A stretch of 32,613 nucleotides of DNA. Origin: Acidimicrobiia bacterium. GTDB lineage: Bacteria; Actinomycetota; Acidimicrobiia; UBA2766. Within the stretch, counting starts at the first letter, position 1, and every line of letters starts with the position of its first letter. This document shows, piece by piece, positions 5,383-32,613 of the stretch. The DNA is taken from positions 1-32,613 of the forward strand of contig JADZDR010000054.1 of NCBI GenBank assembly GCA_020850945.1. Direction: 5' to 3'. The notes below the pieces were generated by a model. The model did no database searches. It was not told the DNA's origin and was given only the letters and a program-made list of their open reading frames with translations. The position numbers and the translations under genes are program-made.

Positions 5383-5430
5383 CCTCTGGGTACCTGAGCG
5401 GCGATATATCGCCGCTCAGGTACCCAGAGG
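5383..5430. repeat. 48-bp perfect palindrome (copy 1, complete)
   Basis: Bases 5383-5406 are exactly reverse-complementary to 5407-5430, with no spacer. The half begins CCTCTGGGTACC and the axis lies in GATATATC. The first half plus two flanking bases (5381-5406) recurs identically at 32588-32613, the last bases of the window. It lies between the acyl-CoA dehydrogenase and the TMEM175-like gene. It has no U-tract, so a plain intrinsic terminator is not obvious, though the transcript would form a very long hairpin. Confidence 0.9.
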
Positions 5431-5434
5431 CGGT

Positions 5435-5462
5435 GTTAGCCCCGATGGATCGGGGCTAACCT
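5435..5462 (+). promoter_or_regulatory. Second palindrome overlapping a -10 element of the TMEM175-like gene
   Basis: GTTAGCCCCGAT (5435-5446) and ATCGGGGCTAAC (5449-5460) form a perfect 12-bp inverted repeat with a two-base centre, four bases after the 48-bp palindrome. TAACCT at 5457-5462 fits an actinobacterial -10 box nine bases before ATG 5472. The repeat could thus be an operator over the promoter of a nearly leaderless mRNA. Function is inferred from position only. Confidence 0.5.
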
Positions 5463-12727: not shown

Positions 12728-12756
12728 CTGGCTGTCCCCTCTACGAACGCTATGCT

Positions 12757-12776
12757 CGTACAAGATTTCTTGCACG
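12757..12776. promoter_or_regulatory. Shared inverted-repeat operator, site 2 (between divergent genes)
   Basis: CGTACAAG (12757-12764), ATTT, CTTGCACG (12769-12776). It sits almost exactly midway between the divergent starts of the crotonase (12727) and the Zn-ribbon/OB protein (12807), where one bound dimer could control both. Confidence 0.7.
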
Positions 12777-12806
12777 ACCCTACAGCGGGATCGAGGGGGA
12801 ACAGGA

Positions 12807-19432: not shown

Positions 19433-19473
19433 CGACCTCCCCCTCGTACTGCCCGCTCCGGGCCCGCTCATGT

Positions 19474-19493
19474 CGTACAAGGATTCTTGCACG
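19474..19493. promoter_or_regulatory. Shared inverted-repeat operator, site 3
   Basis: CGTACAAG (19474-19481), GATT, CTTGCACG (19486-19493). Here the symmetry extends outward to 11-base arms (TGT...ACA) with one mismatch. It stands upstream of the seven-gene MaoC-to-Cys-rich operon and just after the stop of the PAP2-kinase gene. Confidence 0.7.
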
Positions 19494-19508
19494 ACATCGG
19501 GGCCGGTT

Positions 19509-23826: not shown

Positions 23827-23921
23827 CGGCGGGCGACCCGCGTCCCGCCCGCCACCATGTGGGCAGGATCGTCACTCACGTCTGAGGGGAATCCAAGCCC
23901 ACATCGCGGTTTCGGCAACCC

Positions 23922-23963
23922 TGGGCAGCTTCGGCCCTCACTGGTGATAGCCGAAGCTGCCCA
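23922..23963. terminator. 14-bp inverted repeat between the acyltransferase and SDR genes
   Basis: TGGGCAGCTTCGGC (23922-23935) and GCCGAAGCTGCCCA (23950-23963) pair perfectly across a 14-base loop. It is 96 bp after the acyltransferase stop and 40 bp before the SDR start. It may terminate upstream transcription or serve as a binding site; no T-run is present. Confidence 0.4.
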
Positions 23964-23990
23964 CAGGTGCGAGCCGTTGCGGCGGTGCCT

Positions 23991-30876: not shown

Positions 30877-32604
30877 ATGGGTCGTCCACGTAGGTTCCTG
30901 CATGCCCTCACGGTGGGTGCGTCGCTCGCCGTTCTCGCGTGGTGGCTGGGCACGGTCCCGGCTGCAGGGAGCTTCGCCACCGTTGTCATGCTCGTGGCCC
31001 TGGCCCTCTCGATCACGACGTTCGCGGTCGTCGGCGCGCTCGCGTGGCGTCCGTGCCGTCCCTACGAGCGGCCGGCAGGTGACTTCAAGCCCCTCACGAT
31101 CCTCGTCGTCGCAACGGCGGACGACAGTGACGAGAAGCTCCTCACGTCCGTCGCCCTGGCGCAGGGCGCGGGTGAGGTGATCATCGGCGATCTCGCGCCC
31201 AACCCGAGACGGGAGCTCGCAGCAGATCTCGACGTCCTTCTCCTGCACGGAGATGATCCGGCCGACGTGGGGAACGCGGCACTCGCCCAGGCCACGGGTG
31301 AGGCGTTCTGCATCCTCACGGCGCAGGCGTGCGCTGTCGCCCCGGAGCTCCGCGTGGCCACGGCGGCAATGCACGAATCGGCGGCTTGGCTCGTGGCCGA
31401 GACGCGGCCCTACAACGAAGATCGCTTCGCGCCCGCTCCGCACGTGTCGACGGACGATCACATCGACGAGCTCGCCGAGGCGTGGGGTCTTCGTGCCTGG
31501 GCATGCAACGCGACCATCGTGCGCACCCGGGCTGCGCGTGACGTGGGAGGCTTCGAGGCGCACCGCCCGTGGGGCAGCCTCCTGCGGCGCCTGGCCGGAG
31601 CGGGCTGGCGAGGGTGCCGCGTGGCCAACGTGGTCTGCGTCGTCTCTGCCCCATCCGAGCCCACCCGCTTCTGGCGGAACCAGGTCTGGAAGGAGCGCGC
31701 CCGGGTCGCGGAGGCGGCAGATGCGATGCGCCGCCGCGGCGGTGGGTTGGCGGAGAGGTTCGCGGGACTGGCCGTGACCCTGCGGGCTCTGCACGGCATC
31801 CCCAGTGTCCTCTGGGTCCTCGGCTTCGGGACGGTCGCCGTGACAGGGGATGCCTTCACCACGGCTCCTCTCTTGCCCTTCACGCTGGCCCTGTGCGCGA
31901 CGGCCCTTCTGCGCACCCTCAGCCTCAGCCCTGCGGTCGACCCTGTCCGTGTCAACGAGGAGATCGTACGGACCGTGTACAGGGTGCCCGGCTCGCTCTC
32001 CGCTCTGCCCGGCCTGTCAGGCCGGGCTGAGCCGATCGCTTCGTCCAGCGGCACGACCACGGTGCTCCCCGCGCGACCGCTCCTTCTCGTCTGCCTCCTC
32101 CTCGGCCTCGCGATCGGTCAGGGTATCCTCCGCTTGCTCGGAACTGTGCCGGGCGGAGATGCCGGCGTGCACACATGGGGTGCGGTCGCGAGTGGCGCCG
32201 TGCTCCTGATGCTCATCGAGGCCATCGCGTATGCAGGTTCGCTGCGAAGGTCAGGACGGGATTCGTACCGGTTCCCCCTCGACGTCGGTGTACGGCTGAA
32301 TGGGATGGCGGCACGTACCGACGACATCTCCGCCGGGGGCCTACGCTGCCGCACCTCCTCGCGTCTTGCCCCAGATCAGGTCGTAACGCTCACGGTGGAC
32401 TTCGTAGGTCAGGCCCTGCACGTGACAGGAGTCGTGCGCCATGTCGCGCCCGGCGAGGGCGGAACCGAGACCGCAGGCATCCGACTTGCCGAGCCCGTGG
32501 GCGTACGCTGCCGGTGGGTCCGGGCTCTCTTCGCCGAAGCGGGAATTCTCGAGAGGGCACCCGTGCGCGCACGCGTGAGCGTTGCGGGCCCTCTGGGTAC
32601 CTGA
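30877..32604 (+). CDS. Degenerate GT2 (cellulose-synthase-like) membrane protein with C-terminal PilZ domain
   Basis: 575 residues. Two membrane segments (about 8-26, 32-54) are followed by a GT2-like domain and more membrane segments (about 308-345, 400-420, 432-455), then a PilZ domain (about 457-550). PilZ has the c-di-GMP motif: RDSYR (Arg461, Arg465) and DISAGG (Asp483, Ser485, Gly488). The GT2 motifs are damaged: the LDAD-type metal site reads LTAQ (147-150), the 'ED' acid site after GGFE reads HRPWG, and QxxRW reads NQVWKERA. The order BcsA-like helices, GT domain, helices, PilZ is typical of bacterial cellulose synthase, so it is probably a non-catalytic c-di-GMP receptor. The stop codon TGA 32602-32604 lies inside the repeat copy at the window end. 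A true enzyme with unusual motifs cannot be excluded. Confidence 0.8.
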   Translation: MGRPRRFLHALTVGASLAVLAWWLGTVPAAGSFATVVMLVALALSITTFAVVGALAWRPCRPYERPAGDFKPLTILVVATADDSDEKLLTSVALAQGAGEVIIGDLAPNPRRELAADLDVLLLHGDDPADVGNAALAQATGEAFCILTAQACAVAPELRVATAAMHESAAWLVAETRPYNEDRFAPAPHVSTDDHIDELAEAWGLRAWACNATIVRTRAARDVGGFEAHRPWGSLLRRLAGAGWRGCRVANVVCVVSAPSEPTRFWRNQVWKERARVAEAADAMRRRGGGLAERFAGLAVTLRALHGIPSVLWVLGFGTVAVTGDAFTTAPLLPFTLALCATALLRTLSLSPAVDPVRVNEEIVRTVYRVPGSLSALPGLSGRAEPIASSSGTTTVLPARPLLLVCLLLGLAIGQGILRLLGTVPGGDAGVHTWGAVASGAVLLMLIEAIAYAGSLRRSGRDSYRFPLDVGVRLNGMAARTDDISAGGLRCRTSSRLAPDQVVTLTVDFVGQALHVTGVVRHVAPGEGGTETAGIRLAEPVGVRCRWVRALFAEAGILERAPVRARVSVAGPLGT

Positions 32605-32613
32605 GCGGCGATA
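32590..32613. repeat. 48-bp palindrome, copy 2 (left half only; cut at its axis by the window end)
   Basis: The 24 bases equal 5383-5406, and identity extends to 26 bases (32588-32613 = 5381-5406). The sequence stops at the exact symmetry axis of the complete copy. It overlaps the 3' end of the PilZ gene and supplies its TGA stop. A full copy would presumably continue beyond the window. Confidence 0.85.

What the first reader, a model, noticed from the sequence alone, without database searches (positions are those of the whole stretch)
5383..5430. Perfect 48-bp palindrome repeated at the window end
24-bp arms with no spacer and no mismatch are rare in ordinary bacterial DNA. The same half occurs 27 kb away at 32588-32613, so this is a dispersed element, possibly a REP-like or MITE-like palindrome, or a recurrent protein-binding site. 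In one case it lies between genes and in the other it provides a stop codon, which implies insertion at gene 3' ends.
Basis: seen in the sequence. Interest (0 to 1): 0.7.

Follow-up and report, generated by a model that had tools for sequence, protein, structure and literature searches.

The report
Species-private palindromes at gene ends
A 42-bp perfect palindrome sits in about 56 nearly identical copies in this actinobacterial genome, mostly just after genes, and two related bacteria carry their own private palindromes in the same kind of place; they look like tiny self-spreading hairpins that mark the ends of transcripts.

Summary
Window 5383-5430 is a perfect no-spacer palindrome, and the window, a whole contig, ends at the exact centre of a second copy. 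The 3.91-Mb genome (Acidimicrobiia) has 56 copies with at most 3 mismatches in 36 bp; 43 of the 53 copies read are identical over a 42-bp core. Both flanks differ between copies, so this is not a fold-back artefact. Copies cluster at gene 3' ends: 33/48 lie within 40 bp of one, against 25% for random intergenic placement. Ten genes use the palindrome's own TGA as stop codon, and one copy is an in-frame 63-nt insertion absent from the same-genus orthologue. The sequence is absent from 394 other genomes of the class. A sister-genus genome has 50 copies of a different palindrome, mostly 2-11 bp after stop codons or tRNAs, whose arms co-vary. A complete genome of another family has 21 copies of a third. 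No RAYT/Y1 transposase gene, target-site duplication, isolated half-site or U-tract was found. Best reading: a REP-like, non-autonomous mobile hairpin of a new variant, settling at gene 3' ends and probably acting as a bidirectional 3'-end (terminator or stabiliser) hairpin. The mover is unknown.

The parts
5386..5427 (.). Conserved 42-bp palindromic core CTGGGTACCTGAGCGGCGATA|TATCGCCGCTCAGGTACCCAG
   Evidence: 43 of 53 genomic copies read are identical over these 42 bp; 56 copies of the inner 36-mer at <=3 mismatches
5383..5430 (.). Full perfect palindrome of this copy; the outer 3 bp per arm are copy-specific but complementary
32590..32613 (+). Left half of a second copy, cut at the dyad centre by the contig end
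   Evidence: it is the only unpaired half-site in the genome
4246..5325 (+). Acyl-CoA dehydrogenase gene; the core starts 60 bp after its stop codon
5472..6131 (+). TMEM175-family protein gene, 44 bp downstream of the core
30877..32604 (+). PilZ-domain protein gene whose TGA stop (32602-32604) lies inside the palindrome (C-terminus ...LGT*)

Best explanation
The palindrome is one copy of a species-private, non-autonomous mobile hairpin of about 42-63 bp. It has recently multiplied to about 56 copies by insertion into new sites. It survives mainly right after stop codons and tRNA genes, where the transcript (the same on both strands) folds into a 19-21 bp hairpin. There it most likely serves as a bidirectional 3'-end element: a U-tract-less ('I-shaped') terminator or pause, or a barrier to 3' exonucleases. 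Shown: copy number, near-identity, insertion, 3'-end placement, and arm co-variation in the sister-genus family. Inferred: the RNA-level role, and movement by an unidentified enzyme or a hairpin-templated copying process.
For: 56 copies with unrelated flanks. No copy with 2-10 mismatches in about 295 kb around the chosen sites, so expansion is recent or copies are homogenised. A 63-nt in-frame insertion of a copy in an otherwise intact epimerase-family gene, absent from the G001 orthologue. Ten genes end in the palindrome's own TGA; one (L076) reads NLFVQE-LGT* against NLFVVD* in the G002 orthologue. A facing 3' end within 40 bp for 33/48 copies against 25% of random intergenic positions; in G002 35/42 against 29%, mostly 2-11 bp. 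Copies directly follow tRNA genes, not only ORFs. G002 arms identical in 38/43 copies over 19 left-arm sequences, shuffled mean 4.3. One two-sided compensatory change in G000 itself (L310). G005, a complete genome of another family, has 21 copies of its own palindrome; the one read sits 2 bp and 7 bp from two convergent stop codons. Predicted folding -40.3 and -42.8 kcal/mol.
Against: No U-tract follows any copy read, and in vitro work cited in PMC5335608 says mycobacterial RNA polymerase needs one. Eight of 48 G000 copies lie between divergent genes, where a terminator makes little sense. No mobilising enzyme and no target-site duplication were found. Gene calls come from a home-made finder. 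The compared genomes are only about 70-85% identical to this one, so exact insertion boundaries are uncertain.
Confidence: 0.58

Rival explanations
1. A purely selfish REP/MITE-like palindrome moved by some transposase; the 3'-end bias only reflects loss of insertions that damage genes or promoters, or a target preference for hairpins or gene ends.
For: Recent burst of identical copies, absent from relatives; in-frame insertion in a gene; some copies in divergent promoter regions.
Against: The 3'-end bias is measured against random intergenic placement, so gene damage alone does not explain it; in G002 most copies lie 2-11 bp from the stop. No Y1 transposase gene, target-site duplication or parent IS end was found.
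Confidence: 0.25
2. A recurrent binding site for a dedicated dimeric or tetrameric DNA-binding protein (chromosome organisation or regulation); the third half-unit at exactly 30 bp in 24 of the 50 G002 copies would be an extra half-site.
For: Strict conservation of a 42-bp sequence; fixed 30-bp phase of the third half-unit, whose variable bases do not follow those of the palindrome.
Against: In G002 the unconserved positions (10-14 from the centre) are still complementary between arms, which dsDNA recognition does not need; 3'-end placement including tRNAs; sister genome G001 has none.
Confidence: 0.1
3. DNA uptake sequences arranged as inverted pairs that double as terminators, as in Neisseriaceae.
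For: Species-specific 'dialects', inverted pairs, gene ends (compare PMC3630211).
Against: DUS occur in thousands of mostly single 10-12 bp copies (PMC3630211); here essentially every half-site is part of a palindrome and there are only about 56.
Confidence: 0.03
4. Assembly artefact (fold-back or chimeric contig ends).
For: Several contigs end in or near the palindrome.
Against: Most copies are internal with unique sequence on both sides, and an analogous family exists in a single-contig 4.78-Mb genome. Contig ends at repeats are expected from short reads.
Confidence: 0.01

Closest known systems
REP / REPIN (BIME) elements mobilised by RAYT (Y1, IS200-like) transposases
   Same: Short dispersed extragenic inverted pairs forming hairpins, tens to hundreds of copies, non-autonomous, composite arrangements (the G002 third half-unit resembles a BIME).
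   Different: Perfect palindrome with no spacer (REPINs have a diverse spacer, PMC8049555); no PF01797 gene in any of the four genomes of the order that were searched; no GTAG/GGAG at the foot in G000.
Stem-loop repeat families at gene 3' ends (Bor, Ype, Efa and others; PMC1590033, PMC2267715)
   Same: Intergenic stem-loop families concentrated next to stop codons, thought to act at RNA level.
   Different: Here near-invariant, perfectly palindromic, private to single species with a different sequence in each, and with arm co-variation.
U-tract-less (I-shaped) intrinsic terminators of GC-rich actinobacteria (PMC5335608)
   Same: Strong GC-rich hairpin right after the stop codon, no U run.
   Different: Ordinary terminators do not share one sequence at about 56 loci; termination is not shown here.
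DNA uptake sequences (DUS/USS) in inverted pairs
   Same: Species-specific short sequence, inverted pairs at gene ends.
   Different: About 56 long palindromes and no single half-sites, against thousands of 10-12 bp copies.
Rickettsia palindromic elements (RPE)
   Same: Palindromic element inserted in frame in a coding sequence (L051).
   Different: Only one clear case in G000; the family is essentially intergenic. The RPE comparison rests on general knowledge.

Membership tests
REP/REPIN (RAYT-associated) | RAYT (Y1_Tnp, PF01797) gene in the genome or a near relative | tested here: not met
   0 matches in G000-G003; the control search rings in 5 of 14 control genomes
REP/REPIN (RAYT-associated) | Two inverted units forming a hairpin, dispersed and extragenic | tested here: met
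REP/REPIN (RAYT-associated) | GTAG/GGAG tetranucleotide at the hairpin foot (general knowledge) | tested here: not met
   Absent from the G000 core CTGGGTACCTGAGCGGCGATA and its reverse complement; the G002 half-unit does contain GGAG
MITE of a resident insertion sequence | Parent IS with the same terminal inverted repeat | tested here: not met
   Half-site counts (58+55) are accounted for by palindromes plus the cut copy at the window end
MITE of a resident insertion sequence | Target-site duplication | tested here: not met
   Direct flanking repeats not above shuffled pairs for half lengths 19-26
DNA uptake sequence | Hundreds to thousands of single short copies, many in genes | tested here: not met
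   comparison with PMC3630211
Canonical (L-shaped) Rho-independent terminator | U-tract directly after the hairpin | tested here: not met
   0 TTTT within 15 nt on either strand in G000 or G002
I-shaped terminator / 3'-end hairpin | Stable hairpin shortly after the stop codon or RNA gene, no U-tract | tested here: met
I-shaped terminator / 3'-end hairpin | Terminates or protects transcripts in vivo | not testable with these tools
   Needs Term-seq or a reporter assay
Rickettsia palindromic elements | In-frame insertion within ORFs as the usual location | tested here: not met
   One clear in-gene case among 53 copies

The most novel reading that the evidence does not exclude
Acidimicrobiia carry a class of 'mobile terminators': palindromes placed at gene 3' ends by a non-RAYT mechanism, each species renewing its own private sequence, with perfect symmetry kept by copying through a hairpin intermediate.
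Probability: 0.3. Interest if true: 0.82.

Novelty: new variant of a known kind. Interest (0 to 1): 0.6.

Why it matters
Dispersed hairpins at gene ends are usually explained by RAYT transposases or DNA uptake. Here neither signature is present, yet at least three genomes of one class each hold 21-56 copies of a different private palindrome at gene ends. If they move and terminate transcription, they would be portable 3' ends that rewrite transcript boundaries within the life of a species, and the enzyme that places them would be new. The complete-genome case (G005) makes the question testable if that species is in culture.

Tried and rejected
Y1/RAYT transposase: none. Parent IS or isolated half-sites: none. 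Target-site duplication: none. Same sequence in viruses, phages, plasmids, GTDB contigs and 394 other genomes of the class: none (one weak, partial plasmid match at E 0.4). The class-wide pattern demanded GGNNC four bases outside GCGGC and so cannot detect the G002 family; it tests only the G000 type. Palindromes at orthologous positions in G000 and G002: no pair found. Rfam: no hit in the window. A coding reading of the 30-bp G002 repeat looked suggestive by eye but was not tested. A long hairpin in another class genome (G033) proved single-copy, so not every long hairpin here is a repeat family.

Full report
Observation. Positions 5383-5430 form a perfect palindrome, two 24-nt arms with no spacer. 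The longest zero-spacer arm in 100 first-order Markov simulations of the window was 11 nt. The second copy is cut at 32613, the exact dyad centre, because the window is the complete contig C54 of a 97-contig, 3.91-Mb assembly.

Copy number and unit. The own genome has 56 copies of the 36-bp core at up to 3 mismatches. Of 53 copies read with context, 43 are identical over 42 bp, nine have one substitution, and one (L310) has a symmetric two-sided substitution that keeps the palindrome perfect. Flanks are unrelated between copies. The next base out is A or T, complementary across the palindrome in 88% of copies (59% expected), and excess complementarity fades over about 5 bp. Scanning about 295 kb of own sequence around the chosen sites found no copy with 2-10 mismatches in 36, and centre-only matches are no more numerous than full copies. 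So the expansion is very recent or the copies are homogenised. Several contigs end in or near the palindrome, as expected of a short-read repeat.

Placement. With a codon-usage gene finder written here and ARAGORN tRNAs, 33 of 48 G000 copies lie within 40 bp of a facing 3' end, against 25% of random intergenic positions. Divergent regions hold 17% against 27%. Ten genes end in the palindrome's own TGA, giving a C-terminal ...LGT. One of these, in L076, compares as NLFVQE-LGT* here and NLFVVD* in the G002 orthologue, so the element displaced the native stop.

Insertion. The copy in L051 lies inside an epimerase-family gene (Pfam Epimerase plus DUF1731, both matched). The G001 orthologue lacks 21 residues there, and the palindrome is read in frame as part of the extra peptide. 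At the ffh-rpsP junction (gene names from general knowledge of the alignment region) the G001 intergenic stretch also lacks it. These comparisons show insertion (or, less simply, precise loss in the relative).

Relatives. The palindrome is absent from the other three genomes of the order that are held, from the GTDB contig collection as an exact match, and from 394 other genomes of the class, at the sensitivity of the pattern used. De novo palindrome scanning found a different 48-bp perfect palindrome in sister-genus genome G002. There are 50 copies with the invariant centre GCGGCCACATGTGGCCGC. Positions 10-14 from the centre vary between copies, yet the arms stay complementary: 38 of 43 arm pairs are identical over 19 left-arm sequences, against a shuffled mean of 4.3 and maximum of 12. 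Position 20 varies mostly on one side only, so there is no general process making every position symmetric. Aligned from the centre, the two half-units share nTGGnnnnCnGnGCGGCnAnA; whether this is common descent or chance is open. In 24 of the 50 G002 copies a third half-unit lies in direct repeat exactly 30 bp outside, in most cases on the side away from the nearest gene end (18 against 4; one copy has one on both sides). G002 copies are mostly 2-11 bp from a stop codon and several directly follow tRNA-Pro, tRNA-Ser, tRNA-Lys or tRNA-Thr genes. One appears to lie in frame inside a methyltransferase-family gene (L277), but no orthologue was compared.

Generality. A 600-kb sample of other class genomes gave one more family. 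G005, one 4.78-Mb contig, carries 21 copies of TCGGATACGTTTCGTCGG-NN-CCGACGAAACGTATCCGA at <=3 mismatches, two of them with compensatory two-sided changes; the same-genus genome G156 has none. The copy read is 2 bp from one stop codon and 7 bp from the convergent one. A long hairpin in G033 is single-copy.

Mechanism. Shown: dispersed, near-identical, insertional, 3'-end-biased, palindromy kept through paired changes. Inferred: transcripts from either strand fold into the same hairpin (predicted -40 to -43 kcal/mol) right after the coding sequence or tRNA. This suits factor-aided or U-tract-less termination, pausing, or 3' protection. No U run follows. Published opinion on U-tract-less termination in actinobacteria is divided (PMC5335608), so 3' protection or pausing remains as likely as termination proper. 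How copies spread is unknown: no Y1 transposase gene, no target-site duplication, no parent element ends.

Classification. It works like a REP-type 3'-end hairpin but fails the RAYT test, so it is not filed as REP. It is filed as a new variant of dispersed stem-loop repeats at gene ends, described as a kind in PMC1590033 and PMC2267715.

Noticed in passing
L152:3956-4003 and 49 further G002 copies: Sister-genus genome has its own family of 48-bp palindromes with arm co-variation; 24 of 50 carry a third half-unit in direct repeat at exactly 30 bp.
   Followed up: yes
L318:18365-18424 (G005) and 20 more places in that chromosome: Complete genome of another family of the class holds 21 copies of a third private palindrome; absent from the same-genus genome G156.
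   Followed up: partly
L277:1731-2744 (-): In G002 a palindrome appears to lie in frame inside a Methyltransf_28 gene, a second possible in-gene insertion.
   Followed up: partly
window 12756-12777 and 19473-19494: Two exact copies of an operator-like imperfect palindrome TCGTACAAGnnTTCTTGCACGA, with a near match in G001 (L106:4160); looks like a regulator binding site.
   Followed up: partly
window 5435-5460: A second hairpin GTTAGCCCCGATGGATCGGGGCTAAC directly downstream of the palindrome; single copy in the own sequence held.
   Followed up: partly
window 23915-23970: 27-nt inverted repeat, 81% complementary, 2-nt spacer; probably an ordinary terminator-like hairpin.
   Followed up: no
L194:4161-4203 and L200:4160-4208: Two Mycolicibacterium loci share a long near-identical hairpin shortly downstream of the acyl-CoA dehydrogenase homologue, a probable terminator conserved between species.
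   Followed up: no
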